A stretch of DNA of 64,000 bases from Ypsolopha sequella (taxonomy: Eukaryota; Arthropoda; Insecta; Lepidoptera; Ypsolophidae), in assembly GCA_934047225.1 (NCBI GenBank), contig OW203983.1:992001-1056000 (forward strand). Direction: 5' to 3'. This document shows positions 14 through 57,585 of the stretch, in pieces. The translations under genes were made by a program, and so were the position numbers. The notes under the pieces are model-generated. The model saw only the letters and a list, made by a program, of their open reading frames with translations. It was not told where the DNA came from and made no database searches. Position 1 is the stretch's first letter; each line of letters opens with the position of its first letter.

Positions 14-3000
14 ATGTATTCTCGCACCGAGGAAGAAAGATTAGCGTATATAGCCAATAGACAAAAGAACAACTTGGACAATCAACTTCGTTCTGTTCCT
101 CTAGATGAACTTCTTCGTCAAATACACGATGACGAAACTATAATGGGTGAAGGTGGAATTGTTGCGGGGCGCATTTATTTACCTTATACTTTCACAGGTT
201 CCCCACGATATATGAAATGTAAATATATGGACGCAATGGCTGTAGTTGCTCGATTGGGAACACCATCTTACTTTCTAACGTTTACATGCAACGTGAGATG
301 GCCAGAAATTCGAAACATTACTCCAAATTATCAAATGCCTTCTCCTATCATTTGTGCAAGAGTATTCAAATTAAAATTACAAGAATTATTAAGAGATTTA
401 AGAACTGGTAAATTCTTTGGTGGGTGTGTTTACATTTTACATGTAATTGAATTTCAAAAACGAGGACTACCACATGCCCATATTGCTTTTAGAGTAGAAG
501 GTGGTGGTCCTATTCAGAATACAGATATCGATAAAGTTATCCGAGCGGATATTCCCCCTATAGATGAAGCCGATGGAAGGCTACGAAAAACAGTACTAAC
601 ACATATGATTCACGGACCTTGTGGTACCGGACATCGAACCGACCTACCCTGCTGGGATGTAGAGAAAAAAAAATGTTCCAAATATTTTCCAAAACAAGCA
701 ACAGATATAACTCATACTGATGATCGCGGGTTTATTGTTTTAAAAAGGGATCCTGAAAATAAAGCTACAATTAAATATAGAAATAAAAATATCGAAATAA
801 ATGATTTATGGGTTGTTCCGTATAATGCACCTCTTATATTAAAGTACGATTGCCATGTGAATATTGAAGCGGTCTCAACACGGAACATTGTCAAATATTT
901 ATTTAAATACATGACAAAAGGTCCAGATGAAACACGTGTAGCTGTCGTTCCCGAAGCAATTCGAAACGATGAAGTAGAACAATACGTTACAAAACGATAT
1001 CTCGGCGCTTGTGAAGCTGCCTGGAGAATCTTTGAATTCGATATCACAAGTAGAGAACCAAATGTTAAACAATTATCCGTGCATCTGGAAGGACAGCAAA
1101 GTGTGTTTTATCGTTACGGTGAAGAATTAACAGCTGCCGAGAAATCGACTTCTGATTTAATAAAATATTTTAATAGACCGGCTGGGCCGGAATTTGATAA
1201 TTTGACATACATGGATTTCTATGAACAGTATATTGTCAACAGTGTGAAGCCGAAAACAAAAAATGTACCCATTCATGAGATATTAGATGGAAGATATTTT
1301 GTCACTAAGAGACAACGTAAAGAAATGGTCGCTCGATTGTTTTGGGTTTCACCGAATAGAGGCGAACAATTTTATTTACGTTTATTACTAAGTAACTTTC
1401 CGTGTCGCGGCTATAATGATCTGTTGTTATTACATGGTGGTGGTAAATATACCACATTTCAAGAAATTGCACGAGCTCTCGGCATCGCTGATGATGAATT
1501 AGAATATGAAATCGCATTAGAAGAAGCTGCGACATTTTACACAGGTAAAAGTTTGCGACATTTCTTTGTACTTATTATAACTAACGGTGTTGCTCCTGCA
1601 GCTATTCTGTGGGACAAATTTAAACATCTCCTAAGCGAAGATCTTTTAGAAAGACATCGCAATAATGAAGATGAAGCATACCGTCTCGCGCTATTGGAAA
1701 TTGAACAACTCTTACGTAAGCACGGTAGTAGACTTGAAGATCACGGTCTTCCCATCATTGAAGATAATACAACAGAGTTTTACAGGGAACAAACAGCATA
1801 TAGAGGTGAAAACCTCAGAGAATACGTAGGCCATTGGATACCTTTACTGTCATCGGAACAAAGGCAAGTTTTAGATCATATTAATGCTTTGTTTCATCCC
1901 GTTGTTAATTATAACTGTGTAGATAATTTAAACGTTACTGAGTCATCAACTGCTATATTTCTTGATGGTCCATCTGGGACAGGCAAAACATTACTACTTA
2001 ATGTAATTGCTGCTTACGTGCGCTCATGTTTAGGAGGTGTTGTACTTTGCACAGCATATTCAGGTATCGCAGCTACAAACTACGAAGGCGGCTTTACTGC
2101 ACATAGCATGTTCCGTTTGCCTTTGGATATTGTAGATGACAATGGTACTTGGAATTTAACAAACGGCTCTCAACGAGCTGAACTTATTTATAATGCACAT
2201 GTTATAATACTTGATGAAGCACCGATGATGCACAAATATCTAATTCAATTATTAGATAGATCTCTACGTGATTTAATGCGCTGCGATCAACTATTCGGCG
2301 GAAAGATAATTATTCTTGCGGGTGACTTTCGTCAAATTCCACCTGTTGTACCTACAGCTAAAACTAAAATTGACATTTTACAAGCTTCATTAAAAACATC
2401 CTACATCTGGCCCAAATTGTTCAAAATGTGCTTAACTAACGCCCAAAGAACAAGAAATGACGAAAGTTACTCTGATTTCATATTAAAATTAGGTTCTGGA
2501 GAATGTGAAACTATCGAAAGAGGAACCAATAAAAACAAGCAAACTCTTGTTAGTTTGGCACACTTAAATGTCGTGCTTGATTTACAAGAATTGCTTGATT
2601 TCGTTTTTCCTGTTGAGATGTTACACGATTCCGACATTTGTGCAAAAAGAGCAATAATGTCAACACATAATGTAAATGTGAATGAAATTAACGAAATTAT
2701 TCTAAATAAAGTGCCAGGTGACATAATACATTGTTATTCAGTTGACAAAATTGATCCCGAAATATCTAATGAATTTCACCTTGGCGTTGATACTTTAAAT
2801 CGTATTCAAGCCAAAGGGATACCAGACCATCACTTACAAATAAAAGAAGGTGCTATATGTATGATTATTAGAAATCTTAGTTTTGTCGATGGTTTAGTAA
2901 ATGGAACAAAAGTTATAATTGTAGGAATGCTTTCACCAAGAATCATAAAAGTCAGAAAACCTAATGATACAACAATACATTGTATTCCACGAATTACTTT

Positions 3001-3277
3001 TATAACTCCCATAGAGTATAAAAGTCCTATAAATATGTATCGTAATCAATTTCCAATTCAAGTATGTTACGCAATGACGGTACATAAATCACAAGGTCAA
3101 ACAATTGAAAAAGTCGGAGTCGACCTTCGTTCTGACGTTTTCAGTCATGGCCAACTGTACGTCGCCTTAGGACGAGTTCGAAGTCAAGATAACATCATGA
3201 TTTTAACAAAACGAGAACGAATAATTAATGACGTTCCCTATGCCAATAATGTAATAATTCAAGAATTAATTACATAA
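14..3277 (+). CDS. Helitron Rep/helicase (RepHel transposase), 5' partial
   Basis: Rolling-circle transposase that nicks and unwinds Helitron DNA in the nucleus. The 1087-residue frame starts here at the first ATG, but the frame is open upstream to base 2, so the N-terminus (including any zinc finger) probably lies outside the window. Visible Rep motifs: FLTFTCN at residues 87-93, the HUH metal site PHAH at 153-156, and the two catalytic tyrosines in YLFKY at 295 and 299. The helicase half (SF1, Pif1 type) has Walker A GPSGTGKT at 652-659, Walker B LDEAP at 733-737, LAGDFRQIPP at 768-777, TVHKSQGQT near 1022-1030 and QLYVALGRVRS near 1047-1057. No frameshift or internal stop is seen over 3.2 kb, so it may be recent or active. 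I could not find its terminal CTRR and hairpin, so the element's 3' end is undefined. Confidence 0.95.
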   Translation: MYSRTEEERLAYIANRQKNNLDNQLRSVPLDELLRQIHDDETIMGEGGIVAGRIYLPYTFTGSPRYMKCKYMDAMAVVARLGTPSYFLTFTCNVRWPEIRNITPNYQMPSPIICARVFKLKLQELLRDLRTGKFFGGCVYILHVIEFQKRGLPHAHIAFRVEGGGPIQNTDIDKVIRADIPPIDEADGRLRKTVLTHMIHGPCGTGHRTDLPCWDVEKKKCSKYFPKQATDITHTDDRGFIVLKRDPENKATIKYRNKNIEINDLWVVPYNAPLILKYDCHVNIEAVSTRNIVKYLFKYMTKGPDETRVAVVPEAIRNDEVEQYVTKRYLGACEAAWRIFEFDITSREPNVKQLSVHLEGQQSVFYRYGEELTAAEKSTSDLIKYFNRPAGPEFDNLTYMDFYEQYIVNSVKPKTKNVPIHEILDGRYFVTKRQRKEMVARLFWVSPNRGEQFYLRLLLSNFPCRGYNDLLLLHGGGKYTTFQEIARALGIADDELEYEIALEEAATFYTGKSLRHFFVLIITNGVAPAAILWDKFKHLLSEDLLERHRNNEDEAYRLALLEIEQLLRKHGSRLEDHGLPIIEDNTTEFYREQTAYRGENLREYVGHWIPLLSSEQRQVLDHINALFHPVVNYNCVDNLNVTESSTAIFLDGPSGTGKTLLLNVIAAYVRSCLGGVVLCTAYSGIAATNYEGGFTAHSMFRLPLDIVDDNGTWNLTNGSQRAELIYNAHVIILDEAPMMHKYLIQLLDRSLRDLMRCDQLFGGKIIILAGDFRQIPPVVPTAKTKIDILQASLKTSYIWPKLFKMCLTNAQRTRNDESYSDFILKLGSGECETIERGTNKNKQTLVSLAHLNVVLDLQELLDFVFPVEMLHDSDICAKRAIMSTHNVNVNEINEIILNKVPGDIIHCYSVDKIDPEISNEFHLGVDTLNRIQAKGIPDHHLQIKEGAICMIIRNLSFVDGLVNGTKVIIVGMLSPRIIKVRKPNDTTIHCIPRITFITPIEYKSPINMYRNQFPIQVCYAMTVHKSQGQTIEKVGVDLRSDVFSHGQLYVALGRVRSQDNIMILTKRERIINDVPYANNVIIQELIT

Positions 3278-17500: not shown

Positions 17501-19368
17501 TGATAGATGATATCTATACGAAATGACTGACTTAACTATAAATTCATACCTATTACTCCGAAATTCGGTCACGACAAAGAGCTGTATCTGACAAAAACAT
17601 TTTTTACGCACAAACCCTGTAAATAAATTAAAATTTTTTGGTCTCTTATGATTGACGTAACTTTATTAAACAATTCTTAATAAGATGTAATGATATAGAA
17701 ATTTCCATTTACAATGTAAACAATAAAATGTATTACAATCGGGAAAATTAATTACTTTTTTAACCGACTTCAAAAAGAAGACGGTTCTCATTTCGACTGT
17801 ATGTTTTTTTTTCTTTTTTTTTTTTTTTCTTCTTTTTGGCGTTGTTACTCCATAACTCCGTCATTTCCCAACCGATTTGAACAATTCTTTTTTTGTTTGA
17901 AAGAGTATACTTCCAGGTAGGTCCCATTTTAGGTTTGGTCATGATCTGATGAAGGTCTTCAGAGATAGGCAGTGGAACTCCTCAGAAAATGACAGCATAT
18001 CTCTCGAAATTGAGGTAATCGCTATGTATTTGGGTACTGATTACAAGGTATTACTTGAAAATCGACATCTTTCCACCTGACCTTCGATCCTGGCTTCATC
18101 AACATATTCACCATAGAACTCTTCAACGGATCAGAGCACATAACTCGAGATGAGATTATCAGAATACCCACATGATCTTCGATCCTGGCTTCATCACCAT
18201 AGAACTCCTCAACGGATGACAGCACATAACTTTAGATTGCGGCAACCAGTTTGTGTTAGGGTGCTCATTGCAGGGCATTGCTGAAAATTGCCAGTGTATC
18301 CACCTGAATTTCGATCTTGGCTTCATCACCGTAGAACTCTTCAACGGATGACAGCACATAACTCGAGATTGCGGTAATCATGTTGTGTTAGGGTGCTGAT
18401 AGCAGGAAGCTACTCAAACATGGCTACTTATACTCACTTGAACTTCGTTTCATATTAACACCACGTTTGCAAGAACTACCTATACCTCACAATTTAACCC
18501 AGCAACACTAAAAAATGTGAATTAAAATAAACTTCTAACAAAAAAATAGCAACCGACTTCAATAGTAACAGCAGTCATTCACTAAAAAGTTAATAATAAT
18601 TCTATAAAGACCGATGGTACCGAAGCAACACTTATGCCGACTTCTTTCTTCCTGAAACATTATGTTATCTAGAAGTCGGCGTATTTCCTACGATATAGCA
18701 ACATAAAAACCAATATAAGAACGCCGACTTCTAGATAACATAACGTTTCAGGAAGAAAGAAGTCGGCAAAAGTATTGCTTCGGTACCATCGGTCTTTATA
18801 GAATTATTATTAACTTTTTAGTGAATGACTGCTGTTACTATTGAAGTCGGTTGCTATTTTTTTGTTAAAAGTTTATTTACTTTCCTGCAAAATTTCTAAA
18901 AGTGAAATACCTACGCTTGTACGTAAAGAGGGCGACGAATATGTACACACCTACAAAGAGAAATTAAACACGATAAAAATAATATAGATACACTTATGTT
19001 ACAAAAATACAAGTTAATATTTGAATAATTTATTTAGTCAATAATTCCTAATCTACCTATTTTCTATAATACTACGATACAGAAATATTTTACATATCAC
19101 TTAAATTTAGACTTTAAATATTTCAACTTAACTATTTACAACACACTTAAATATATTATATACAAGATTTAATGTCTCTAATCGTTATTGACTGCTCTGT
19201 TGTGTACACTATATGTTTAACAATGTTTTTTTTTTTTTTAGCTGCGTAAAATGTATTGAACGCGACAGCGCGGACCAAGAAGCCGCACGCACTCTTGCAC
19301 ACACGCACAGCCATGATCGTGGTCGTGGCCAAAGACAACAAGCAGCACGCGGCCGCAACTATTACCAA

Positions 19369-19414
<46 letters not shown>

Positions 19415-19596
19415 ATAATGACCGCGGCCACGGTCGCGGCCGTGGTAATAATAATTACGGCCGCGGCCACGGTCGCGGCCGTGGTAATAATAATTACGGC
19501 CGCGGCCACGGTAGTGGCCGTGGTAATAATCGCAACCAACAATACTATGCAGAGAAAATAGTAATAATAAAAAAAATGCTGAATTTGTTAAAATAA
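14514..19596 (+). CDS. Split gene for a 152-residue Arg-Gly-rich protein (four coding exons)
   Basis: I do not recognise the protein. Coding exons are 14514-14536, 15704-15748, 16254-16289 and 19242-19596: 459 nt in all, exactly 153 codons with the TAA. Every intron has a GTAAGT donor and a pyrimidine-AG acceptor, and all three are in phase 2, so the frame closes perfectly. The start is CAAAATGG, a good insect context. The N-terminal third is rich in Thr, Glu and Pro (EVPKETVSEEP, ATTEKPP). A CVKC pair follows, then HTHSH, a (GR)7 run and 13-residue repeats GHGRGRGNNNYGR. RG/RGG tails like this usually bind RNA and may be methylated on arginine, often in nuclear or granule proteins; that role is inference. 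AATAAA overlaps the stop codon. Missed extra exons in the 2.95 kb last intron are possible. Confidence 0.6.
15086..15500. mobile_element. Non-autonomous hAT-like element
   Basis: Starts CAGCGTTTCTTAACC (15086) and ends AAGATTAAGAAACGCCC; the termini are inverted repeats of the CAGNGTTTCTTAACC type typical of hAT elements. Just inside lie TGATCCGCGGACC at the left and GGGGTCCGTGAACA at the right, again complementary. About 415 bp, no transposase. I could not fix a clean 8 bp target duplication. It lies in the intron between the first two coding exons of the split gene. Confidence 0.65.
15519..15676. mobile_element. MITE family copy D
   Basis: Left arm CTGATTCTGAAGACTTTAAC, right arm AATAAAAGCCTTAAAATCTGC: the same family as the copies at 11441-12253, more decayed. 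It sits 19 bp from the hAT-like element and just before the 45 nt exon. Confidence 0.65.
15704..15748 (+). CDS. Split gene, second coding exon (45 nt)
   Basis: Acceptor CTGTTTATAG ends at 15703, donor GTAAGT starts at 15749. Encodes NQEVPKETVSEEPI flanked by split codons. It is a multiple of three with phase 2 on both sides, so skipping it would keep the frame. A MITE ends 28 bp before it. Confidence 0.6.
16254..16289 (+). CDS. Split gene, third coding exon (36 nt)
   Basis: Acceptor TTGTTTACAG ends at 16253, donor GTAAGT starts at 16290. Encodes TEQNIATTEKP flanked by split codons. Like the previous exon it is symmetrical (12 codons, phase 2-2). Confidence 0.6.
16717..17170 (+). pseudogene. 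Relic exon of a transposon-type gene, family not identified
   Basis: After an acceptor-like TTTTTATAG (to 16716) the frame reads LLPKTIYS... through CNICSSIKLNKPK, REIYSQFYKMKNIQLQREQR, RRTRTLKYYL to a TGA at 16984. The same frame goes on as KRKVCIGSFFQIHYKFLRKL to a TAA, and after a frame change as LEKVDSIGILVKDEQGG-RQSLKERN...IIENHM. The pattern (two-Cys motif, RxR..LKYYL, VC..FF...L, VD..GIL...GG) matches an abundant family of insect transposon-derived proteins I remember but cannot name. Two in-frame stops and a frameshift make it a relic. It lies inside the last intron of the split gene. Confidence 0.45.
17182..17515 (+). mobile_element. LINE-like 3' tail fragment
   Basis: Begins with an inverted pair GGTGGTA / TACCACC (17182-17188, 17217-17223) and ends AAAAGGCTTATGTCCAACAG, TGGACG, TAGGCTGATAGATGAT, closely like the 3' end of non-LTR elements widespread in Lepidoptera (AGGCCTATGTCCAGCAGTGG). 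The middle (CTATCCATCCC...CTGGTGCGAGG) is degraded reverse-transcriptase-end sequence with no usable frame. Confidence 0.6.
17760..18525. repeat. AACCGACTTCAA repeat with internal tandem copies
   Basis: Starts TAACCGACTTCAAAAAGAAG, then TTCGACTGTATG, a long T tract, CTCCGTCATTTCCCAACCGA and TTTGTTTGAAAGAGTA, a series I know as a common lepidopteran repeat. From about 18060 to 18380 a unit with GATCYTGGCTTCATCA, CATAGAACTC, TCAACGGAT and AGCACATAACT appears three times (18088, 18179 and 18312). Short minus-strand frames here are repeat sequence, not genes. Confidence 0.6.
18526..18877. repeat. Near-perfect palindrome: 157 bp arms, 38 bp loop
   Basis: Arms 18526-18682 and 18721-18877 pair without any gap (position sums are constant at 37403); I count about four substitutions. 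Each arm carries AACCGACTTCAATAG near its outer end and AGAAGTCGGCGT at its inner end. It lies in the last intron of the split gene, so the pre-mRNA would hold a long hairpin. It is an element of the AACCGACTTCAA family or an inverted duplication of one. Confidence 0.85.
19242..19596 (+). CDS. Split gene, last exon with RG repeats
   Basis: A run of T ending in AG at 19241 is the acceptor. The exon encodes CVKCIERDSAD, a His-rich step, (GGTCGT)7-derived GR repeats at about 19371-19412 and a 39 bp tandem repeat (19427-19465, 19466-19504 and a third partial copy). The DNA repeats also open frames in other phases and on the minus strand; those are shadows. It ends with KIVIIKKMLNLLK. Confidence 0.65.
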
Positions 19597-22208: not shown

Positions 22209-22698
22209 CTTCCAAACATTTAAGGCTCGACTCCGTTGAACGTTGGTTCAAGCACATTTCCACCGTTTACATTTTGGACTTTTGACATATGTCAGAGTAC
22301 ACAATTGCAAAATAGTAGTCCATTTCTATTGAATCAAAAGTTACCACACGTATTTCAACGCGCTATTACGGTTACGACGATGACAATTTTGAAAACTGAT
22401 CATGACCGATGACTTTTTTTCCCACCCGATCATGACCGATGACATGTCGTGATACAATTGACTTCTGCCCATTACTTGATTGTCGTCTGATCACCTGTTT
22501 CAACTCAATTTCAGCTTCCAAACGTGTTTTAAACTCGAAACCTTATCCTGTCACGTTAACGAAAAAGTTACAACAACAACTAAATGCAACAACAAACAAC
22601 AACAGGTAACAACCAGTAACAACAAAGAACAATAAGTAACAATAGCGTTTACCACACACGCGGGCTGCCTGCAGCCCGCGCACCACGCAAAACACTAG
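22209..22698 (+). mobile_element. Truncated Helitron-like unit (unit 0, 3' end only)
   Basis: Opens at TATCTTCCAAAC, the end of a GC subrepeat, and carries a well-preserved 3' tail with the paired GATCATGACCGATGAC repeats (22398 and 22428) and the terminal hairpin and CTAG. A CAACAA-rich stretch precedes the hairpin. This is the left edge of the compact array. Confidence 0.8.
22659..22698 (+). terminator. Helitron-type 3' terminus (hairpin + CTAG)
   Basis: CGCGGGCTGC (22659-22668), loop CT, GCAGCCCGCG (22671-22680), then 14 nt and CTAG (22695-22698). This hairpin-plus-CTRR layout is the known transposition terminator of Helitrons. The same hairpin and CTAG recur at the end of every unit (CTAG ends at 25339, 27947, 31088, 34233, 37826, 40272, 43413, 46557, 49195, 51836, 54444, 57585, 60730 and 63112). 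Confidence 0.8.
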
Positions 22699-23000
22699 TT
22701 GCGAGCATAGCGAGCGCGAAGCGCGAGCATAGCGAGCGCGAAGCGCGAGCATGCGAGCTATATTATATAAAATTACAAAACGGTAACTGACTGACTGACT
22801 GACTGACATGGTTGTTTAGTTGGAAGGAGTCCTTTGGGATGGTAGTGATGTATGTATGGAATGTTGGGTGTCTAATACTGAGTGGGGAAAAAATCAGACA
22901 TTTGACATTTTTTGACATTTGACATGGGTTTTTGACATTTTAGTGAGGCGGGTCGTTGTATGGGATTTTGTATGGGAGTTTGGAAAAATTTCGCGAGTGA

Positions 23001-23221
23001 GTAGGCGAGCCCGAAGGGCGAGCCTACGAACGAGCACGAACGAGCACGCGAGCGCGAAGCGCGAGCGGGCGAAGTTCGTAGGGATGTACCTGGGTACTAG
23101 GGATGGGAAAAATTGACATTTTTGACATTATTGACAGAACGAGCCCGCGAGCGCGAAGCGCGAGCGGGCGAAGTTCGCCGGAACAAGCCCGCGAGCGCGA
23201 AGCGCGAGCGGGCGCAGTTCC
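23001..23221 (+). repeat. Cluster of nested GA-mismatch hairpins in unit 1
   Basis: 23001-23027: stem GTAGGC/GCCTAC, GA/GA, stem GCCC/GGGC, loop GAA. 23137-23176: GAAC/GTTC, GA/GAA, GCCCGC/GCGGGC, GA/GA, GCGC/GCGC, loop GAA. 23180-23221: GGAAC/GTTCC, AA/GCA, GCCCGC/GCGGGC, GA/GA, GCGC/GCGC, loop GAA. A further one at 23045-23069 has one A-G mismatch in the outer stem. The complementary strand would present TC/TC mismatches and TTC loops, which are not stabilising. Confidence 0.85.
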
Positions 23222-23379
23222 TAGGGATGTCCCCGGTCACTAGGGATGGGATTTTTTTTTTTTTTCTAAAATTTGTTACAAAAAAATTTTGTTTTGGCCA
23301 TATCTTCAGAACGGAAGGTGGTACAACCCTAGGGGTCGGACCATAGGGTGCCAAAAAAGTTTCTTTTTTTTTTTTAAAT

Positions 23380-23577
23380 GTCAAAACTTTAACGGCCCGT
23401 ATCTCCTAGACGGCTTGAGTTAGACCCATGTTGATGGGTGTCTAAGAAAAGGTCTCGCCGAGATCTAGCCCCCCCCGGTGTCAAAACTTCAACGGCCCGT
23501 ATCTCCCAAACGGCTGGAGCTAGACCCATGTTCATGGTACTCTAAGAAAAGGGCTCGGCGAGATCTTTCTGGAAATA
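23380..23577 (+). repeat. 100 bp tandem duplication inside the unit
   Basis: Two copies start at GTCAAAACTT (23380 and 23480). Each reads AACGGCCCGTATCTCC, an ACGGCT word, TAGACCCATGTT then ATGG, TCTAAGAAAAGG and CGAGATCT. They differ at scattered sites and are kept in every full unit. A run of seven or eight C separates the copies. Confidence 0.8.
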
Positions 23578-23910
23578 AAATAAAAAAAAAAAAAAGTCGA
23601 AAAAAAAAAAAAAATTTTACGAAAACTTTGGTCGGCCATATCTCCCGAACCGTAAGTCCTAGCGAGTTGCGGTTTCGACTTTAGTGATCGGTTCGCCGAG
23701 CGCTACCCGACCGCATAAAAAAATTTGACATTTGACATAATTTGACATTTTTTTGACAGGTCCAAAAAAGTGCTCCGATTCGCTTGAAACTCGGTATCCA
23801 GGAGTAAGTGGGGTCGCTGATTACGAATTTGTTGTCAAATTTGACACTTTTTGACAAACGACAGGGATTATGACACTTTTTCGAAAAAAAATTGATCGCA
23901 CGTTTCTTCG

Positions 23911-24446
23911 GATCTAACGGCGAGGCCGAAGGCCGAGCTTACAAGTGTCTTTCCAGCGAGGCCGAAAAACGAGCATGCGAGGACGGAGAACGCGCCAGCG
24001 AGGCCGAAGGCCGAGCTGGCAGCGTTCGGAGTCCGAACATGCTCGTTTTTTGGCCGAGCACGACACCGCGGCCACCAGAGTCATATCTGATGTCATTCTA
24101 GGGAGGCCGATGGCCGACCCCGGAGGACGATTCCGGAGGAATCGTCCGGAGGCCAAACAGTACCAAGCGGCGAGGCCGGAGGCCGAGCCTGTGAGGCCGA
24201 AGGCCGAACCGAGTATAAGCGAGGCCGATGAACGAACATACGAGGCCGAAGGCCGAGTATGTGAGTTCATGAGGCCGAGTTCACTTTACCCCGAGAGCAT
24301 TACAAGACTGTTTCACTTGGACGTATCTCTCAAACGTTTGAGATTGGGCTTAGCGGGATTCAACTTCGTAGAAAGTTGGTTCAAGCACACTTAGACCGTT
24401 GACAGTTTGGACACTTGACAGCTGTCAGAGGAAACATTTCGCGTAA
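23911..24446 (+). repeat. GGCC subrepeat 1 of unit 1 (536 bp)
   Basis: Holds seven or more GGCC-N3-GGCC hairpins, a GGACGATTCC/GGAATCGTCC hairpin with GGA loop (24125-24147), and the nested hairpin at 24223-24276. It ends with the 12 bp palindrome TGACAGCTGTCA. Stop codons are rare on both strands, which produces long overlapping frames of no coding value. Confidence 0.8.
24223..24276 (+). repeat. Four-tier nested hairpin with GA mismatches
   Basis: From outside in: GGCC/GGCC, G/GA, ATGAAC (24228-24233)/GTTCAT (24265-24270), GA/GA, ACATAC (24236-24241)/GTATGT (24257-24262), GA/GA, GGCC/GGCC, loop GAA (24248-24250). It recurs in nearly every subrepeat of the array. Confidence 0.85.
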
Positions 24447-24960
24447 ACGATCCCGGCGAGGCCGAAGGCCGAGCCTACAAGTGTCTTTATAGCGAGGCCG
24501 AAAAACGAGCATGGGAGGACGGAGAACGCGCCAGTGAGGCCGAAGGCCGAGCTGGCAGCGTTCGGAGTCCGAACATGCGAGTTTTTCGGCCGAGCACGAC
24601 ACCGCGGCTACCAGAGTCATATCTGATGTCATCCTAGGGAGGCCGAAGGCCGACCCCGGAGGACGATTCCGGAGGAATCGTCCGGAGGCCAAACAGTACC
24701 AAGCGGCGAGGCCGGAGGCCGAGCCTGTGAGGCCGAAGGCCGAACCAAGTATAAGCGAGGCCGATGAACGAACATACGAGGCCGAAGGCCGAGTATGTGA
24801 GTTCATGAGGCCGAGTTCACTTTACCCCGAGAGCATTACAAGACAGTTTCTTTTGGATCTGTCTCGCAAACGTTTGAGATTGGGCTTAGCGGGATTCGAC
24901 TCCGTTGAAAGTTGGTTCCAGCACATTTCGACCGTGTACATTTTGGACCTTTGACAGCTG
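24447..24960 (+). repeat. GGCC subrepeat 2 of unit 1
   Basis: Same order as subrepeat 1; begins GATCCCGGCGAGGCC and ends at ACAGCTGTC (24954-24962). The Cys-rich arm word CCAGC is CCAGT here (24531), giving a G-T wobble in the stem. Confidence 0.8.
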
Positions 24961-25065
24961 TCAGAGTACACAATAGCAAAATATTAGTCCACTTCAATGG
25001 AATCAAAGTTTCCACACGTATTTCAACGCGCTATTACGGTTACGACGATGACAATTTTGAAAACT

Positions 25066-25111
25066 GATCATGACCGATGACTTTTTTTCCCACCCGATCA
25101 TGACCGATGAC
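25066..25111 (+). repeat. Paired 16 bp direct repeats in the unit tail
   Basis: GATCATGACCGATGAC at 25066-25081 and again at 25096-25111, 30 bp apart start to start, separated by TTTTTTTCCCACCC. Present in every unit about 230-270 bp before the CTAG end. The three-turn spacing recalls iterons bound by replication proteins; function not known. Confidence 0.7.
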
Positions 25112-25339
25112 ATTTCGTGATACAATTGACTTCTGCCCATTACTTGAATGTCGTCTGATCACCTGTTTCAACTCAATTTCAAACGTGTTTTTTACTCGAT
25201 ACCTTATCCTGTCACGTTAACGAAAAAGTTACAACAACAGCTACATTACAACAAAACAAACAACAATAACGAAGCCCAACCAAGAACAATTACAACTCAC
25301 GCGGGCTGCCTGCAGCCCGCGCACCACGCAAAACACTAG

Positions 25340-27947
25340 TTGCGAGCATAGCGAGCGCGAAGCGCGAGCATGCGAGCTATATTATATAAAATTACAAAAC
25401 GGTAACTGACTCACTCACTGATTGACATGGTTGTTTAGTTGGAAGGAGTCGTTTGGGGTGGTAGTGATGTATGTATGGAATGTTGGGTGTCTAATACTGA
25501 GTGGGGAAAAACCTCGACATTTGACATTTTTTGACATTTGACATGGGTTTTTGACATTTTAGTGAGGCGGGTCGTTGTATGGGATTTTGTATGGGAGTTT
25601 TGAAAAATTTCGCGAGTGAGTAGGCGAGCCCGAAGGGCGAGCCTACGAACGAGCACGAACGAGCACGCGAGCGCGAAGCGCGAGCGGGCGAAGTTCGTAG
25701 GGATGTACCTGGGTACTAGGGATGGGAAAAATTGTCATTTTTGACAGAACGAGCCCGCGAGCGCGAAGCGCGAGCGGGCGAAGTTCGCCGGAACAAGCCC
25801 GCGAGCGCGAAGCGCGAGCGGGCGCAGTTCCTAGGGATGGCCCCGGTCACTAGGGATGGGAATTTTTTTTTTTTCTAAAATTTGTTACAAAAAAATTTTG
25901 TTTTGGCTATATCTTCGGAACGGAAGGTGGTACAACCCTAGGGGTCGGACCATAGGGTGCCAAAAAAGTTTCTTTTTTTTTTTTTAATGTCAAAACTTTA
26001 ACGGCCCGTATCTCCTAGACGGCTTGAGTTAGACCCATGTTGATGGGTGTCTAAGAAAAGGTCTCGCCGAGATCTAGCCCCCCCCGGTGTCAAAACTTCA
26101 ACGGCCCGTATCTCCCAAACGGCTGGAGCTAGACCCATGTTCATGGTACTCTAAGAAAAGGGCTCGGCGAGATCTTTCTGGAAATAAAATAAAAAAAAAA
26201 AAAAGTCGAAAAAAAAAAAAATTTTTTACGAAAACTTTGGTCGGCCATATCTCCCGAACCGTAAGTCCTAGCGAGTTGCGGTTTCGACTTTAGTGATCGG
26301 TTCGCCGAGTGCTACCCGACCGCATAAAAGAATTTGACATTTGACATAATTTGACATTTTTTTGACAGGTCCAAAAAAGTACTCCGATTCGCTTGAAACT
26401 CGGTATCCAGGAGTAAATGGGGTCGCTGATTACGAATTTGTTGTCAAATTTGACACTCTTTGACAACCGACAGGGACTTTGACACTTTTTCGAAAAAAAA
26501 ATGATCGGACGTTTCTTCGGATCTAACGGCGAGGCCGAAGGCCGAGCCTACAAGTGTCTTTACAGCGAGGCTGAAAAACGAGCATGTGAGGACGGAGAAC
26601 GCGCCAGCGAGGCCGAAGGCCGAGCTGGCAGCGTTCGGAGTCCGAACATGCTCGTTTTTTTGCCGAGCACGACACCGCGGCCACCAGAGTCATATCTGAT
26701 GCCATTCTAGGGAGGCCGAAGGCCGACCCCGGAGGACGATTCCGGAGGAATCGTCCGGAGGCCAAACAGTACCAAGCGGCGAGGCCGGAGGCCGAGCCTG
26801 TGAGGCCGAAGGCCGAACCGAGTATAAGCGAGGCCGATGAACGAACATACGAGGCCGTAGGCTGAGTATGTGAGTTCATGAGGCCGAGTTCTTTTGACCC
26901 CGGGAGCATTACAAGACAGTTTCACTTGGACGTATCTCCCAAACGTTTGAGATTGGGTTTAGCGGTATTCAACTTCGTAGAAAGTTGGTTCAAGCACATT
27001 TCGACCGTTGACAGTTTTGACACTTGACAGCTGTCAGAGGAAACATTTCAAGTAACGGATCCCGGCGAGGCCGAAGGCCGAGCCTACAAGTGTCTTTATA
27101 GCGAGGCCGAAAAACGAGCATGTGAGGACGGAGAACGCGCCAGCGAGGCCGAAGGCCGAGCTGGCAGCGTTCGGAGTCCGAACATGCTCGTTTTTTTGCC
27201 GAGCACGACACCGCGGCCACCAGAGTCATATCTGATGCCATTCTAGGGAGGCCGAAGGCCGACCCCGGAGGACGATTCCGGAGGAATCGTCCGGAGGCCA
27301 AACAGTACCAAGCGGCGAGGCCGGAGGCCGAGCCTGTGAGGCCGAAGGCCGAACCGAGTATAAGCGAGGCCGATGAACGAACATACGAGGCCGAAGGCCG
27401 AGTATGTGAGTTCATGAGGCCGAGTTCACTTAACCCCGGGAGCATTACAAGACAGTTTCTTTTGGACCTATCTCGCAAACGTTTGAGCTTGGGCTTAGCG
27501 GGATTCGACTCCGTTGAATGTTGGTTCCAGCACATTTCGACCGTGTACATTTTGGACCTTTGACAACTGTCAGAGTACACAATAGCAAAATATTAGTCCA
27601 CTTCAATGGAATCAAAGTTACCACACGTATTTCAACGCGCTATTACGGTTACGACGATGACAATTTTGAAAACTGATCATGACCGATGACTTTTTTTCCC
27701 ACCCGATCATGACCGATGACATTTCGTGATACAATTGACTTCTGCCCATTACTTGAATGTCGTCTGATCACCTGTTTCAACTCAATTTCAAACGTGTTTT
27801 AAACTCGAAACCTTATCCTGTCACGTTAACGAAAAAGTTAAAACAACAGCTACATTACAACAACAAACAACAATGAATAGAGTACAACAAAGAACAATTA
27901 CAACTCACGCGGGCTGCCTGCAGCCCGCGCACCACGCAAAACACTAG
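25340..27947 (+). mobile_element. Helitron-like array unit 2 (2608 bp)
   Basis: Two subrepeats (26528, 27064). A single linker hairpin. In the first subrepeat the inner arm is mutated to GAGGCCGTAGGCTGAG (26851-26866), which spoils one hairpin. No difference from unit 11 was seen where compared. Confidence 0.8.
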
Positions 27948-30900
27948 TTGCGAGCATAGCGAGCGCGAAGCGCGAGCATGCGAGCTATATTATATAAAAT
28001 TACAAAACGGTAACTGACTGACTGACTGACTGACATGGTTGTTTAGTTGGAAGGAGTCCTTTGGGATGGTAGTGATGTATGTATGGAATGTTGGGTGTCT
28101 AATACTGAGTGGGGAAAAAATCAGACATTTGACATTTTTTGACATTTGACATGGGTTTTTGACATTTTAGTGAGGCGGGTCGTTGTATGGGATTTTGTAT
28201 GGGAGTTTGGAAAAATTTCGCGAGTGAGTAGGCGAGCCCGAAGGGCGAGCCTACGAACGAGCACGAACGAGCACGCGAGCGCGAAGCGCGAGCGGGCGAA
28301 GTTCGTAGGGATGTACCTGGGTACTAGGGATGGGAAAAATTGACATTTTTGACATTATTGACAGAACGAGCCCGCGAGCGCGAAGCGCGAGCGGGCGCAG
28401 TTCCTAGGGATGGCCCCGGTCACTAGGGATGGGAATTTTTTTTTTTTTCTAAAATTTGTTACAAAAAAATTTTGTTTTGGCTATATCTTCGGAACGGAAG
28501 GTGGTACAACCCTAGGGGTCGGACCATAGGGTGCCAAAAAAGTTTCTTTTTTTTTTTTAATGTCAAAACTTTAACGGCCCGTATCTCCTAGACGGCTTGA
28601 GTTAGACCCATGTTGATGGGTGTCTAAGAAAAGGTCTCGCCGAGATCTAGCCCCCCCCGGTGTCAAAACTTCAACGGCCCGTATCTCCCAAACGGCTGGA
28701 GCTAGACCCATGTTCATGGTACTCTAAGAAAAGGGCTCGGCGAGATCTTTCTGGAAATAAAATAAAAAAAAAAAAAGTCGAAAAAAAAAAAAAATTTTTA
28801 CGAAAACTTTGGTCGGCCATATCTCCCGAACCGTAAGTCCTAGCGAGTTGCGGTTTCGACTTTAGTGATCGGTTCGCCGAGCGCTACCCGACCGCATAAA
28901 AGAATTTGACATTTGACATAATTTGACATTTTTTTGACAGGTCCAAAAAAGTACTCCGATTCGCTTGAAACTCGGTATCCAGGAGTAAATGGGGTCGCTG
29001 ATTACGAATTTGTTGTCAAATTTGACACTCTTTGACAACCGACAGGGACTTTGACACTTTTTCGAAAAAAAAATGATCGGACGTTTCTTCGGATCTAACG
29101 GCGAGGCCGAAGGCCGAGCCTACAAGTGTCTTTACAGCGAGGCTGAAAAACGAGCATGTGAGGACGGAGAACGCGCCAGCGAGGCCGAAGGCCGAGCTGG
29201 CAGCGTTCGGAGTCCGAACATGCTCGTTTTTTGGCCGAGCACGACACCGCGGCCACCAGAGTCATATCTGATGCCATTCTAGGGAGGCCGAAGGCCGACC
29301 CCGGAGGACGATTCCGGAGGAATCGTCCGGAGGCCAAACAGTACCAAGCGGCGAGGCCGGAGGCCGAGCCTGTGAGGCCGAAGGCCGAACCGAGTATAAG
29401 CGAGGCCGATGAACGAACATACGAGGCCGAAGGCCGAGTATGTGAGTTCATGAGGCCGAGTTCACATAACCCCGGGGGCATTACAATACTGTTTCACTTG
29501 GACATGTCTCCCGAACGGCTGAGGCTGGGCTTAGCGGGATTCAAGTTGATTCAGATTCAAAGTTGGTTCAAGCACATTTCGACCGTTGACAGTTTGGACA
29601 CTTGACAGCTGTCAGAGGAAACATTTCACGTAACGGATCCCGGCGAGGCCGAAGGCCGAGCCTACAAGTGTCTTTATAGCGAGGCCGAAAAACGAGCATG
29701 GGAGGACGGAGAACGCGCCAGCGAGGCCGAAGGCCGAGCTGGCAGCGTTCGAAGTCCGAACATGCGAGTTTTTCGGCCGAGCACGACACCGCGGCTACCA
29801 GAGCCATATCTGACGTCACCCTAGGGAGGCCGAAGGCCGACCCCGGAGGACGATTCCGGAGGAATCGTCCGGAGGCCAAACAGTACCAAGCGGCGAGGCC
29901 GGAGGCCGAGCCTGTGAGGCCGAAGGCCGAACCGAGTATAAGCGAGGCCGATGAACGAACATACGAGGCCGAAGGCCGAGTATGTGAGTTCATGAGGCCG
30001 AGTTCACTTTACCCCGAGAGCATTACAAGACTGTTTCTTTTGGACCTATCTCCTAAACGTTTGAGATTGGGCTTAGCGGGATTTGACTACGTTGAATTGG
30101 TTCAAGCACATTACGACCGTTGACAGTTTGGACACTTGACAGCTGTCAGAGGAAACATTTCGCGTAACGGATCCCGGCGAGGCCGAAGGCCGAGCCTACA
30201 AGTGTCTTTCTAGCGAGGCCGAAAAACGAGCATGGGAGGACGGAGAACGCGCCAGTGAGGCCGAAGGCCGAACTGGCAGCGTTCGGAGTCCGAACATGCG
30301 AGTTTTTCGGCCAAACACGACACCGCGGCTACCAGAGTCATATCTGATGTCATCCTAGGGAGGCCGAAGGCCGACCCCGGAGGACGATTCCGGAGGAATC
30401 GTCCGGAGGCCAAACAGTACCAAGCGGCGAGGCCGGAGGCCGAGCCTGTGAGGCCGAAGGCCGAACCGAGTATAAGCGAGGCCGATGAACGAACATACGA
30501 GGCCGAAGGCCGAGTATGTGAGTTCATGAGGCCGAGTTCACATAACCCCGAGATCGTTACAAGACAGTTTCTTTTGGATCTATCTCGCAAACGTTTGGGA
30601 TTGGGCTTAGCGGGATTCGACTCCGTTGAAAGTTTGTTCAAGCACATTTCGACCGTGTACATTTTGGACTTTTGACAGCTGTCAGAGTAAACAATAGCAA
30701 AATATTAGTCCACTTCAATTGAATCAAAGTTACCACACGTATTTCAACGCGCTATTACGGTTACGACGATGACAATTTTGAAAACTGATCATGACCGATG
30801 ACTTTTTTTCCCACCCGATCATGACCGATGACATTTCGTGATACAATTGACTTCTGCCCATTACTTGAATGTCGTCTGATCACCTGTTTCAACTCAATGT

Positions 30901-31088
30901 CAGCTTCCAAACGTGTTTTAAACTCGAATTCTCCTCAATCCTGTCACGTAAACGAAAAAGTTTCAACAACAACTATGTACAACCAACAACAACAGGTAAC
31001 AACAACCAACAACCAATAACAATAAGTAACAATAGCGTTTACCACACACGCGGGCTGCCTGCAGCCCGCGCACCACGCAAAACACTAG
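27948..31088 (+). mobile_element. Helitron-like array unit 3 (3141 bp)
   Basis: Three subrepeats (29100, 29642, 30175). Of the two GCCCGC/GCGGGC hairpins found in unit 1, only one remains near 28367: the left arm of the first is joined to the right arm of the second. The first subrepeat has a short insertion, TTGATTCAGATTCAA, near 29545. Same as units 7 and 12. Confidence 0.8.
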
Positions 31089-34233: not shown

Positions 34234-37200
34234 TCTATATATTATAAAGATACAAAACCGTCACTCACTGACTCACTGATTGACATGGTAGTTTAGTTGG
34301 AAGGAGTTGTCTGACATTGTAGTAATGTATGAATACAATGTCAGGTGTCTAATACTGACTGGGGAAAAATTATGACATTTGACATTTTTTGACATTTGAC
34401 ATTTTTATGTCAATTCTTGTGGAAAGTGGCAGAATGTATGGGGATTTGTATGGGATTTTTGCGAAAATTTTTTTTTATTGGAACGAGCACGCGAGCGCGA
34501 AGCGCGAGCGTGCGAGTTCCTATGGACATGTCCAGCCACTAGGGATGTACCTACTTTGACATTTTTGACATTTTTTTGACATTTTCTTATATCTCCCGAA
34601 CCGCTGGTCCTAGCGAGTTGCGGTTTGGACTATAGTGATGGGCTCGTCATAGGGGTTTGTATAGGGATGTCCCCCGGCACTAGGGATGGGACATTTTTTT
34701 TTTTTTTATAAATTTACTACAAAAAAATTTTGTTTTGGCCATATCTTCGGAACGGAAGGTGGTACAACACTAAGGGTCGGCTCATAGGGTGCCAAAAAAG
34801 TTTCTTTTTTTTTTTTAATGTCAAAACTTTAACCGACCGTATCTCCTAGACGGCTTGAGTTAGACCCATGTTGATGGGTGTCTAAGAAAAGGTCTCGCCG
34901 AGATCTAGCCCCCCCCGGTGTCAAAACTTTAACCGCCCGTATCTCCCAAACGGCTGAAGCTAGACCCATGTTCATGGTACTCTAAGAAAAGGGCTCGGCG
35001 AGATCTTTCTGGAAATAAAATAAAAAAAAAAAAAAGTCGAAAAAAAAAAAAATTTTTTACAAAAACTTTGGTCGGCCATATCTCCCGAACCGTAAGTCCT
35101 AGCGAGTTGCGGTTTCGACTTTAGCGATCGGTTGGCCGAGCGCTACCCGACCGCATAAAAAAATTTGACATTTGACATAATTTGACATTTTTTTGACAGG
35201 TCCAAAAAAGTGCTCCGATTCGCTTGAAACTCGGTTTACAGGAGTAAATGGGGTCGCTTATTACGAATCCACTGTCAAATTTGACACTTTTTGACAACCG
35301 ACAGGGATTTTGACACTTTTTCGAAAAAAAATTGATCGGACATTTCTTCGGATCTAACGGCGAGGCCGAAGGCCGAGCTTACAACTGTCTTTCCAGCGAG
35401 GCCGAAAAACGAGCATGTGAGGACGGAGAACGCGCCAGTGAGGCCGAAGGCCGAGCTGGCAGCGTTCGGAGTCCGAACATGCTCGTTTTTCGGCCGAGCA
35501 CGACACCGCGGCCACCAGAGTCATATCTGATGTCATCCTAGGGAGGCCGAAGGCCGACCCCGGAGGACGATTCCGGAGGAATCGTCCGGAGGCCAAACAG
35601 TACCAAGCGGCGAGGCCGGAGGCCGAGCCTGTGAGGCCGAAGGCCGAACCGAGTACAAGCGAGGCCGATGAACGAACATACGAGGCCGAAGGCCGAGTAT
35701 GTGAGTTCATGAGGCCGAGTTCACATAACCCCGGGGGCATTACAAGACAGTTTCTTTTGGACCTATCTCCTAAACGTTTGAGATTGGGCTTAGCGGGATT
35801 CGACTACGTTGAATTGGTTCAAGCACATTTAGACCGTTGACAGTTTGGACACTTGACAGCTGTCAGAGGAAACATTTCGCGTAAACGATCCCGGCGAGGC
35901 CGAAGGCCGAGCCTACAAGTGTCTTTATAGCGAGGCCGAAAAACGAGCATGGGAGGACGGAGAACGCGCCAGTGAGGCCGAAGGCCGAGCTGGCAGCGTT
36001 CGGAGTCCGAACATGCGAGTTTTTCGGCCGAGCACGACACCGCGGCTACCAGAGCCATATCTGATGTCATCCTAGGGAGGCCGAAGGCCGACCCCGGAGG
36101 ACGATTCCGGAGGAATCATCCGGAGGCCAAACAGTACCAAGCGGCGAGGCCGGAGGCCGAGCCTGTGAGGCCGAAGGCCGAACCGAGTATAAGCGAGGCC
36201 GAAGGCCGAGTATGTGAGTTCATGAGGCCGAGTTCACATAACCCCGGGGGCATTACAATACCGTTTCACTTGGACATGTCTCCCGAACGGCTGAGGCTGG
36301 GCTTAGCGGGATTCAACTTCGTAGAAAGTTGGTTCAAGCACATTTAGACCGTTGACAGTTTGGACACTTGACAGCTGTCAGAGGAAACATTTCGCGTAAA
36401 CGATCCCGGCGAGGCCGAAGGCCGAGCCTACAAGTGTCTTTATAGCGAGGCCGAAAAACGAGCATGGGAGGACGGAGAACGCGCCAGTGAGGCCGAAGGC
36501 CGAGCTGGCAGCGTTCGGAGTCCGAACATGCGAGTTTTTCGGCCGAGCACGACACCGCGGCCACCAGAGTCATATCTGATGTCATTCTAGGGAGGCCGAA
36601 GGCCGACCCCAGAGGACGATTCCGGAGGAATCGTCCGGAGGCCAAACAGTACCAAGCGGCGAGGCCGGAGGCCGAGCCTGTGAGGCCGAAGGCCGAACCG
36701 AGTATAAGCGAGGCCGATGAACGAACATACGAGGCCGAAGGCCGAGTATGTGAGTTCATGAGGCCGAGTTCACATAACCCCGGGGGCATTACAATACCGT
36801 TTCACTTGGACATGTCTCCCGAACGGCTGAGGCTGGGCTTAGCGGGATTCAACTTCGTAGAAAGTTGGTTCAAGCACATTTAGACCGTTGACAGTTTGGA
36901 CACTTGACAGCTGTCAGAGGAAACATTTCGCGTAAACGATCCCGGCGAGGCCGAAGGCCGAGCCTACAAGTGTCTTTCTAGCGAGGCCGAAAAACGAGCA
37001 TGGGAGGACGGAGAACGCGCCAGTGAGGCCGAAGGCCGAGCTGGCAGCGTTCGGAGTCCGAACATGCGAGTTTTTCGGCCGAGCACGACACCGCGGCTAC
37101 CAGAGTCATATCTGACGTCATTCTAGGGAGGCCGAAGGCCGACCCCGGAGGACGATTCCGGAGGAATCGTCCGGAGGCCAGACAGTACCAAGCGGCGAGG

Positions 37201-37826
37201 CCGGAGGCCGAGCCTGTGAGGCCGAAGGCCGAACCGAGTATAAGCGAGGCCGATGAACGAACATACGAGGCCGAAGGCCGAGTATGTGAGTTCGTGAGGC
37301 CGAGTTCACTTAACCCCGGGAGCATTACAAGACTGTTTCTTTTGGACCTATTTCGCAAACGTTTGAAATTGGGCTTAGCGGGATTCGACTCCGTTGAAAG
37401 TTGGTTCCAGCACATTTCGACCGTGTACATTTTGGACCTTTGACAACTGTCAGAGTACACAATAGCAAAATATTAGTCCACTTCAATGGAATCAAAGTTA
37501 CCACACGTATTTCAACGCGCTATTACGGTTACGACGATGACAATTTTGAAAACTGATCACGACCGATGAGTTTTTTTCCCACCCGATCATGACCGATGAC
37601 ATTTCGTGATACAATTGACTTCTGCCCATTACTTGAATGTCGTCTGATCACCTGTTTCAACACAATTTCAAACGTGTTTTTTACTCGATACCTTATCCTG
37701 TCACGTTAACGAAAAAGTTACAACAACAACTAAATGCAACAACCAACAACAACAAATAGAGTACAACAAGGAACAATTACAACTCACGCGGGCTGCCTGC
37801 AGCCCGCGCACCACGCAAAACACTAG
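34234..37826 (+). mobile_element. Helitron-like array unit 5 (3593 bp), canonical TC 5' end
   Basis: Starts TCTATATATTATAAAG right after CTAG, with no GC linker; the first 450 bp belong to a diverged subfamily shared with unit 15 (TCTGACATTGTAGT, GTCAATTCTTGTGG). A perfect three-tier hairpin lies at 34480-34520 (GGAAC/GTTCC, GCACGC/GCGTGC, GCGC/GCGC). Four subrepeats (35359, 35893, 36408, 36944); the second lost 21 bp of a hairpin arm between GAGGCC direct repeats near 36195. Confidence 0.85.
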
Positions 37827-57400: not shown

Positions 57401-57585
57401 CTTCCAAACGTGTTTTAAACTCGAATTCTCCTCAATCCTGTCACGTAAACGAAAAAGTTTCAACAACAACTATGTACAACCAACAACAACAGGTAACAAC
57501 AACCAACAACCAATAACAATAAGTAACAATAGCGTTTACCACACACGCGGGCTGCCTGCAGCCCGCGCACCACGCAAAACACTAG
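54445..57585 (+). mobile_element. Helitron-like array unit 12 (3141 bp, copy of units 3 and 7)
   Basis: Offsets 26,497 from unit 3 and 14,172 from unit 7. Subrepeats at 55597, 56139 and 56672. Confidence 0.8.

What the first reader, a model, noticed from the sequence alone, without database searches (positions are those of the whole stretch)
23001..24276. A structural code: co-varying stems punctuated by GA/GA and capped by GNA triloops
Across each unit the + strand repeatedly has the form stem X, GA, stem Y, GAA, Y', GA, X'. X is GTAGGC, GCCCGC, GCCAGC, ACATAC or GGC; Y is GCCC, GCGC or GGCC; GA and GAA are constant. Some have a third tier (24223-24276; 34480-34520). DNA C-GNA-G loops, as in the d(GCGAAGC) mini-hairpin, and tandem sheared G-A pairs in a CGAG context are known to be extremely stable. 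Changing stems with constant joints suggests selection, or a copying process, that preserves a fold of one strand only. In a rolling-circle element the + strand (TC to CTAG) could be the displaced single strand.
Basis: partly seen in the sequence, partly recalled or inferred. Interest (0 to 1): 0.9.

Follow-up and report, generated by a model that had tools for sequence, protein, structure and literature searches.

The report
GA-jointed DNA hairpin ladders
A tandem array of rolling-circle (Helitron-type) jumping DNA, probably from a moth or butterfly, carries 164 palindromes built to one rule, with GA joints always on the same strand, and that strand is predicted to fold into stacked hairpins; hairpins of the same build, with different stems, turn up in unrelated viruses and microbes, so it is likely a general folding code of single-stranded DNA.

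Summary
The described form is real. In the array (21.8-64 kb) all 164 two-tier triloop palindromes with equal two-base joints have GA/GA joints on the + strand; 11 other joint dinucleotides give none. Ladders reach seven tiers. The array is 14 head-to-tail Helitron-type units (15 3' ends); the GA strand is the one nicked and displaced in the Helraiser model.
Inside the array, covariation is thin (1 of 37 pairs, not above shuffles) and joints vary more than stems (11 of 66 against 11 of 176 columns), so the array alone does not prove selection.
Scans elsewhere support the rule: in AT-rich viral contigs, GA-jointed hairpins with free stem letters are complementary in 50 of 51 (GAA cap) and 70 of 70 (GTA cap), without G-T wobble in 242 pairs.
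Best reading: DNA hairpins folding on the displaced single strand. Fold and function are inferred. Interest high; new variant of known single-strand hairpin elements.

The parts
22659..22698 (+). Helitron-type 3' terminus: 10-bp hairpin CGCGGGCTGC/GCAGCCCGCG, 14 nt, CTAG; first of 15 in the window
22699..25339 (+). unit U1 of the head-to-tail array (14 complete units between 22698 and 63112; 6 to 15 strict two-tier GA hairpins per unit)
22723..22758 (+). four-tier hairpin at the 5' junction: GC[GA]GCAT[A]GC[GA]GCGC<GAA>GCGC[GA]GC ATGC[GA]GC; a hairpin lies between T and CTATA (once CTCTATA) of the 5' end at 13 of 15 junctions
22993..23035 (+). four-tier hairpin GC[GA]GT[GA]GTAGGC[GA]GCCC<GAA>GGGC[GA]GCCTAC[GA]AC[GA]GC
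23037..23078 (+). hairpin with GCACGC against GCGGGC (one A-G mismatch) around GCGC<GAA>GCGC
23137..23176 (+). three-tier hairpin GAAC[GA]GCCCGC[GA]GCGC<GAA>GCGC[GA]GCGGGC[GAA]GTTC; tandem relative at 23180-23221
24101..24119 (+). two-tier hairpin GG[GA]GGCC<GAT>GGCC[GA]CC (the joint context that breaks the pyrimidine-GA-purine rule)
24120..24152 (+). CC[GGA]GGACGATTCC<GGA>GGAATCGTCC[GGA]GG
24169..24189 (+). GGC[GA]GGCC<GGA>GGCC[GA]GCC
24191..24209 (+). GT[GA]GGCC<GAA>GGCC[GA]AC
24223..24276 (+). tiered hairpin GGCC[G]ATGAAC[GA]ACATAC[GA]GGCC<GAA>GGCC[GA]GTATGT[GA]GTTCAT[GA]GGCC
24492..24595 (+). seven-tier hairpin, 104 nt; 34 full copies of this hairpin in the array, 20 of them parsed as seven tiers
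34234..37826 (+). unit U5 with the canonical 5' end TCTATATATTATA, 8-10% diverged from the other units
34480..34520 (+). GGAAC[GA]GCACGC[GA]GCGC<GAA>GCGC[GA]GCGTGC[GA]GTTCC, homologous to 23137-23176 with A-T in place of C-G
14..3277 (+). Helitron Rep/helicase ORF (Helitron_like_N + PIF1); not shown to be the partner of the array

Best explanation
Shown by sequence: GA/GA joints, GNA caps and complementary stems, all on the strand that runs from the Helitron 5' end to CTAG. Inferred: (1) when a Helitron transposase nicks and peels off this strand, each palindrome folds at once, the GA/GA joints stacking as sheared G-A pairs and C-GNA-G capping the end, so that the strand is compacted and shielded, or marked as the strand to be processed; (2) in duplex DNA the same joints keep the palindrome imperfect, and the other strand would have TC/TC joints and TTC caps, so a cruciform is less favoured and the repeat survives in the chromosome. 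The scans in phages and prokaryotes suggest the rule is a property of single DNA strands and not of this Helitron.
For: 164 of 164 equal-joint two-tier hairpins are GA/GA on the + strand, none on the - strand (TC), none with 10 other dinucleotides. Pyrimidine-GA-purine at 8 of 8 distinct joint contexts with >=3-bp stems. Helitron-type 3' ends and head-to-tail units, + strand = TC..CTAG strand; in Helraiser precise in-vitro junctions come from that strand and it is the one displaced in the authors' model (PMC5876387, passages). Stems vary less than flanks (11/176 against 57/194 columns, p = 3.4e-9; 6.4e-4 with the narrowest flanks). The rule holds elsewhere with stems free: viral contigs <45% GC, 50 of 51 and, expected beforehand because GTA caps had been seen, 70 of 70 for the GTA cap. 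AT-rich complementary matches in controls: AG joints 0 of 1 (58 matches in a complete scan), AAG cap 0 of 1 (33, complete), GAAA tetraloop 2 of 2 (17, complete), fully paired joints 1 of 1 (121, capped scan). For DNA rather than RNA: no G-T wobble among 242 free pairs in AT-rich viral loci, and a triloop in place of the GNRA tetraloop that RNA prefers (recalled). The GCGAAGC mini-hairpin melts at 78 C and resists nucleases; GNA loops share this (PMC4686876, passages). No sequence relation between units and the fetched loci beyond one 37-nt match (E 5e-4) to a stretch in L376 that includes its hairpin.
Against: Covariation among homologous copies in the array is not above shuffles. Joints and caps vary more than stems in the array (p = 0.021) and not clearly less than flanks (p = 0.05 to 0.70 by flank set). 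In 11 of 34 copies one joint is fully paired, GA against TC. Predicted energies favour the + strand only modestly (DNA model -37.6 against -33.9, -16.4 against -15.1, -15.0 against -13.3, -8.4 against -8.0, -16.5 against -15.8, -14.7 against -12.8 kcal/mol), and that model does not know the GA or GNA rules. The doubled 5' hairpin (22698-22762) folds no better than shuffles (z = +1.2). Helraiser donors must be double-stranded, its circles are double-stranded, lagging-strand synthesis is drawn on the displaced strand, and some minus-strand junctions were seen, so the single-stranded time may be short. Among prokaryote matches two G-T pairs occur, third-tier GA/GA joints come almost all from one CCGC/GCGG family, and some of those copies are followed by T-runs as RNA terminators are. 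AT-rich viral matches include relatives of each other (38 different left flanks among 50). No experiment shows the fold or a function.
Confidence: 0.5

Rival explanations
1. The hairpins work as RNA: the array is transcribed and the + strand transcripts fold (terminator-like, precursor-like or protein-binding hairpins).
For: Under RNA energies the + strand is clearly better than the - strand (-71.7 against -58.4 kcal/mol for the large hairpin). T-G (G-U) pairs occur in the large hairpin and in two prokaryote matches. Some CCGC/GCGG copies in haloarchaea are followed by T-runs.
Against: No Rfam match at gathering thresholds. In AT-rich viral loci no G-T pair in 242 free pairs, and the GAAA tetraloop version is almost absent (17 matches in a complete scan, 2 AT-rich and complementary). 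Neighbouring phage hairpins often point in opposite directions (12 of 20 pairs within 200 bp, some loci being relatives), so one transcript could not carry both in sense. No transcription data for the array were available.
Confidence: 0.2
2. A copying process makes them: snap-back synthesis, templated repair or nested insertion of small palindromes with GA as a target duplication creates and keeps paired stems, without selection on a fold.
For: The same GGCC<GAA>GGCC core sits inside several different outer stems. A 22-bp tandem duplication of a hairpin half (22698, 49195) and a joint that is GA/GA in some copies and GA/TC in 11 of 34 show that such events happen. Stems vary less than joints, as templated correction would give.
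Against: Templated correction would turn GA/GA into GA/TC, yet 164 joints are GA/GA. It does not predict pyrimidine-GA-purine contexts, GNA caps, or GA over AG in unrelated phages. I saw no copy with an empty inner site but made no systematic search for one.
Confidence: 0.2
3. Only common descent: a few ancestral hairpins were duplicated through the array, and the uniform joints are inherited, with no present function.
For: Units are 90-100% identical; 27 distinct sequences among 164 strict hairpins; a decayed outside relative near 8397-8476 (69.5% over 82 nt, E 0.004) has lost joints and pairs.
Against: Outer stems around the shared core are different sequences and still pair. The same rule is found in phages and prokaryotes without a sequence relation to the array (only one 37-nt match among all fetched loci; no match of the hairpin region in annotated phages). 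Stems are less variable than flanks.
Confidence: 0.1

Closest known systems
Helitron / Helraiser rolling-circle transposons
   Same: 3' hairpin followed by CTAG, TC 5' end in two units, head-to-tail tandem copies, Rep/helicase ORF of insect Helitron type in the same window
   Different: Helitrons are introduced in the passages read as having one palindrome near the 3' end (PMC6544945, PMC3789558); here each unit also carries 6 to 15 strict two-tier GA-jointed hairpins, and 13 of 15 junctions have one at the 5' end
REP/BIME palindromes and TnpA-REP (RAYT), IS200/IS605 ends
   Same: Hairpins used as single-stranded DNA on one strand, with conserved unpaired stem positions; mutations closing the E. 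coli REP mismatch severely affect cleavage (PMC8266576, passages)
   Different: E. coli REP mismatch is AA-GC, tags are GTAG or CGTC (PMC3733652, passages); no tiered GA/GA ladder appears in the passages read, and no TnpA-REP gene was sought beside these loci
Extraordinarily stable GNA mini-hairpins, d(GCGAAGC)
   Same: C-GNA-G triloop on G-C pairs, thermostable and nuclease resistant (PMC4686876, passages; PMC10527192, passages)
   Different: In the passages read these are short synthetic sequences and aptamer clamps; here the cap tops genomic ladders with GA/GA joints
Integron attC sites
   Same: Strand-selective folded single-strand DNA recognised by structure (PMC2727003, start of abstract in the listing)
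   Different: Selectivity there comes from extrahelical bases (recalled), not from GA/GA joints and GNA caps

Membership tests
Helitron (non-autonomous) | 3' CTRR end preceded by a short hairpin | tested here: met
   15 of 15 unit ends: hairpin, 14 nt, CTAG
Helitron (non-autonomous) | 5' TC end | tested here: inconclusive
   2 of 15 junctions read CTAG|TCTATATATTATA; 13 read CTAG|TT-hairpin-CTATA or CTCTATA
Helitron (non-autonomous) | insertion between A and T of the host without target duplication | not tested
   no solitary copy with both ends was identified in the window
Helitron (non-autonomous) | mobilised by a Rep/helicase partner | tested here: inconclusive
   a Rep/helicase ORF at 14-3277, but two units have no blastn match at E <= 1e-3 in 1-21700
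REP / TnpA-REP element | single hairpin with GTAG or CGTC tag | tested here: not met
   hairpins are tiered with GA joints; by inspection no common GTAG/CGTC tag among the 34 forms
REP / TnpA-REP element | associated TnpA-REP gene | not tested
   own genome could not be searched (genome search did not complete)
GNA mini-hairpin DNA | C-GNA-G triloop | tested here: met
tandem sheared G-A joint | pyrimidine-GA-purine context | tested here: met
   8 of 8 distinct contexts with >=3-bp stems; one 2-bp context fails
tandem sheared G-A joint | sheared pairing in solution | not testable with these tools
   needs NMR or crystallography
known structured RNA | Rfam match | tested here: not met
   0 matches at gathering thresholds

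The most novel reading that the evidence does not exclude
There is a DNA folding grammar in nature: stems free to vary, joined by pyrimidine-GA-purine tandem pairs and capped by C-GNA-G, written on one strand only. Moth rolling-circle elements, AT-rich phages, archaea and bacteria have each arrived at it, because it lets one strand fold firmly when single while the duplex stays a harmless imperfect palindrome. The Helitron array, with ladders of up to seven tiers, is the most elaborate case met here.
Probability: 0.45. Interest if true: 0.92.

Novelty: new variant of a known kind. Interest (0 to 1): 0.8.

Why it matters
Rules by which genomic single-stranded DNA folds are far less known than those of RNA. 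Here is a rule simple enough to search for (free stems, GA joints, GNA caps) that separates hairpins from chance almost perfectly in the AT-rich viral loci sampled, and whose triloop and lack of wobble there argue for DNA, not RNA, as the folding molecule. If it holds, it gives a sequence signature of DNA that lives part of its life single-stranded, and a handle on why Helitrons use one strand.

Tried and rejected
Rfam: nothing. Protein reading of the hairpin ORFs: the 196-aa ORF has no homologue at E <= 0.001, and it and the 141-aa ORF have no Pfam match, so these ORFs are probably by-products of the repeats. Blast of the hairpin region against annotated phages and of a unit against plasmids: no match. 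A scan for a unit-specific 17-mer in viral contigs gave one AT-rich stretch that looks unrelated by eye (read). Covariation by shuffles inside the array was run hoping for support and gave none. Alignment A2 misplaced the variable outer joint and was replaced by A3. Comparison of joints and caps by ViennaRNA energies was rejected as a test because its parameters give GA = AG and rank all listed triloops equal. A search for GA joints of any stem in AT-rich phage loci showed no general excess over other joints (distinct forms: GA 28, AT 27, TT 25, TA 22), so the phage hairpins are a specific element and not a background tendency. Of three T7-like cyanophage genomes looked at, one has a GC-clamped GA hairpin (24811) and two have none. 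Nested insertion with GA target duplication was considered; empty inner sites were not searched for systematically. In one search one hairpin (GG[GA]GGCC...) was split by an alignment gap and its columns counted as flank, which works against the stem-flank contrast.

Full report
What the window is. The left 21.8 kb is AT-rich insect-like DNA with a Helitron Rep/helicase ORF at 14-3277 (Helitron_like_N and PIF1). Its nearest named relatives are lepidopteran (Ostrinia furnacalis and Maniola/Aphantopus 60% identity over the whole query, Colias croceus 63% over 57% of it; thrips, leafhopper and others follow near 50%), so the host is probably a moth or butterfly. From about 22 kb to the end the window is a head-to-tail array: 15 Helitron-type 3' ends (10-bp hairpin, 14 nt, CTAG) bound 14 units of 2.4-3.6 kb. 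Two of 15 junctions go straight to a TCTATATATTATA 5' end; 13 have a GA-jointed hairpin between the T and CTATA (once CTCTATA). Units are 90-100% identical, with blocks of 12 kb repeated at 99.66%. The + strand of the window is the TC..CTAG strand.

The observation. With fixed definitions (outer stem >=3 bp, equal two-base joint on both sides, inner stem 4-8 bp, three-base loop) the array has 164 hairpins with GA/GA joints, at 164 different loop positions and in 27 distinct 43-nt sequences, and none with TC, AG, CT, AA, TT, GG, CC, GT, AC, CA or TG; the left part of the window has none. TC/TC would be the same hairpin on the other strand, so the asymmetry is complete. Caps are GAA 129, GGA 32, AAA 3. 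A wider parse with a chosen list of joints gives 308 places in 34 distinct forms, 9 of the places being one form without GA joints; the largest ladder is GC[GA]GGCCGAAAAAC[GA]GCATG[GGA]GGAC[GGA]GAACG[C]GCCAG[TGA]GGCC<GAA>... with seven tiers, and two-base tiers (GC, GT) are strung on GA joints at 22993-23035. Distinct GA/GA joints between stems of >=3 bp are all pyrimidine-GA-purine, 8 of 8 (1.5e-5 if each context had chance 1/4). That is the context in which tandem G-A pairs are sheared (recalled). One two-base-pair context breaks it (GG[GA]GGCC).

What does not hold. Inside the array the evidence for selection on pairs is weak. On 18 of 35 copies of the large hairpin (12 distinct rows; the rest are further copies or truncated) one pair of 37 has changes on both sides, and 50/500 to 446/500 shuffles do as well on the five measures. 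The homologous small hairpin differs by A-T against C-G between unit types, with an A-G mismatch there in 12 places. On 34 of 35 sub-repeats (one truncated copy dropped; columns with fewer than 30 letters dropped) variable columns are 11 of 176 in stems, 11 of 66 in joints and caps, 57 of 194 in flanks. Stems are constrained (p = 3.4e-9 against flanks, 6.4e-4 with the narrowest flank set); joints vary more than stems (p = 0.021) and are not clearly below flanks (p = 0.051, 0.23 and 0.70 for three flank sets). One joint is GA/GA in 23 and GA/TC in 11 of 34 copies.

The test outside the window. Because the array is young, I asked whether the rule recurs elsewhere, fixing only joints, cap and G-C clamps and leaving stem letters free. 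In loci under 45% GC the free letters are complementary in 50 of 51; from 45 to 55% GC in 4 of 7; from 55 to 65% in 9 of 39; above 65% in 0 of 19, chance being 1 in 16. The 50 have 38 different 10-nt left flanks. Among 242 free pairs in AT-rich loci 241 are Watson-Crick, 0 are G-T, 1 is other. GC-clamped GA hairpins in the first 127 loci have GNA caps in 95 of 96; most were caught by the search pattern itself, and leaving out the 81 complementary pattern matches leaves 15, of which 14 are GNA. Absence of wobble, a triloop rather than GNRA, and frequent opposed orientation of neighbours (12 of 20 pairs within 200 bp, some from related contigs) point to DNA. A search of AT-rich phage loci for GA joints on any stem showed no general excess, so this is a specific element. 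The two unit types have no blastn match to the fetched loci except 37 nt in L376, a stretch that includes that locus's hairpin.

Failures include a repeated Omnitrophota element with a G-G mismatch and two G-T cases. A third tier on a two-by-two joint is present in 21 of 133 distinct contexts of both collections. In the genome set the left GA was fixed by the pattern; the free right side is GA in 13, GT in 5 and CG in 1 of 19. Of the 13, 12 are one CCGC/GCGG family; the eight whose titles were printed are haloarchaea, and some copies are followed by T-runs, where an RNA role is plausible. In the cyanophage NATL1A-7 the hairpin lies in a gap between small genes on the transaldolase side of the terminase gene; two other T7-like cyanophages lack it.

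How it likely works. In Helraiser precise in-vitro junctions came from the top strand, only the plus-strand junction oligonucleotide was cleaved, and the plus strand is nicked and displaced in the authors' model (a few minus-strand products were seen; PMC5876387, passages); that is the strand on which these hairpins have GA/GA joints. The same paper shows that donors must be double-stranded and circles are double-stranded, so the displaced strand may be single only briefly. The GCGAAGC mini-hairpin melts at 78 C and, like other GNA-capped ones, resists nucleases (PMC4686876, passages; PMC10527192 lists 76.5 and 88.5 C for two- and three-pair hairpins of this kind, passages). I infer that the ladders fold on the displaced strand, shielding or marking it, while in duplex DNA the mismatched joints keep palindromes imperfect. 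In E. coli REP elements a conserved mismatch in a single-strand hairpin matters for recognition and closing it severely affects cleavage (PMC8266576, passages), a precedent for joints as signals. Predicted energies favour the + strand in 6 of 6 regions, modestly, both strands being predicted to fold, but the model is blind to the GA and GNA effects; one region, the doubled 5' hairpin, folds no better than shuffles.

Literature. Full-text searches for GNA triloop or sheared G-A with hairpin or palindrome, GCGAAGC (29), motif strings (55), REP mismatches (57), tandem GA terms (69), Helitron arrays and hairpins and cyanophage hairpins (86) listed no paper that by its title or the start of its abstract describes tiered GA-jointed genomic hairpins. 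Only an open-access library was searched, and of the papers listed eight were opened, for passages only (PMC5876387, PMC8266576, PMC7709200, PMC6544945, PMC3789558, PMC3733652, PMC10527192, PMC4686876).

Noticed in passing
22227-34234 and 48723-60731: 12-kb blocks of several Helitron units repeat at 99.66% identity, like a higher-order satellite repeat; recent amplification or an assembly duplication.
   Followed up: partly
23379-23566 and equivalents in other units: Two ~100-bp modules (GTCAAAACTT..CGTATCTCC..ACGG..GAGATCT) in tandem, with what look like further relatives nearby (23280-23360, 23620-23720, by eye), of unknown nature.
   Followed up: no
8397-8476 and 9150-9181: A decayed relative of the small hairpin region outside the array (69.5% over 82 nt, E 0.004), changed much at CpG sites, and a second one seen by eye only; joints GA partly turned to AA.
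   Followed up: partly
22698-22762 and 49195-49259: The 5' junction hairpin has a 22-bp tandem duplication of part of itself in two units.
   Followed up: no
19213-19596: ORF with a GGTCGT / Gly-Arg coding repeat (RGG-like) between the Helitron gene and the array; no Pfam match.
   Followed up: no
L001, L014, L064, L086, L088, L092, L095, L101, L106, L115, L125: In AT-rich viral contigs (one, L064, with a transaldolase gene as in T7-like cyanophages) GA-jointed hairpins come as divergent pairs 51-73 bp apart.
   Followed up: partly
L311, L312, L330, L335, L343, L365, L374, L387: Haloarchaea share a three-tier CCGC[GA]GC[GA]GGCC or GGGC<GAA> hairpin, sometimes followed by a T-run.
   Followed up: partly
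L315, L321, L355, L381, L382: Contigs of one Boseongicola MAG end in or next to a GA-jointed hairpin, so it is probably a repeat that breaks assembly there.
   Followed up: no
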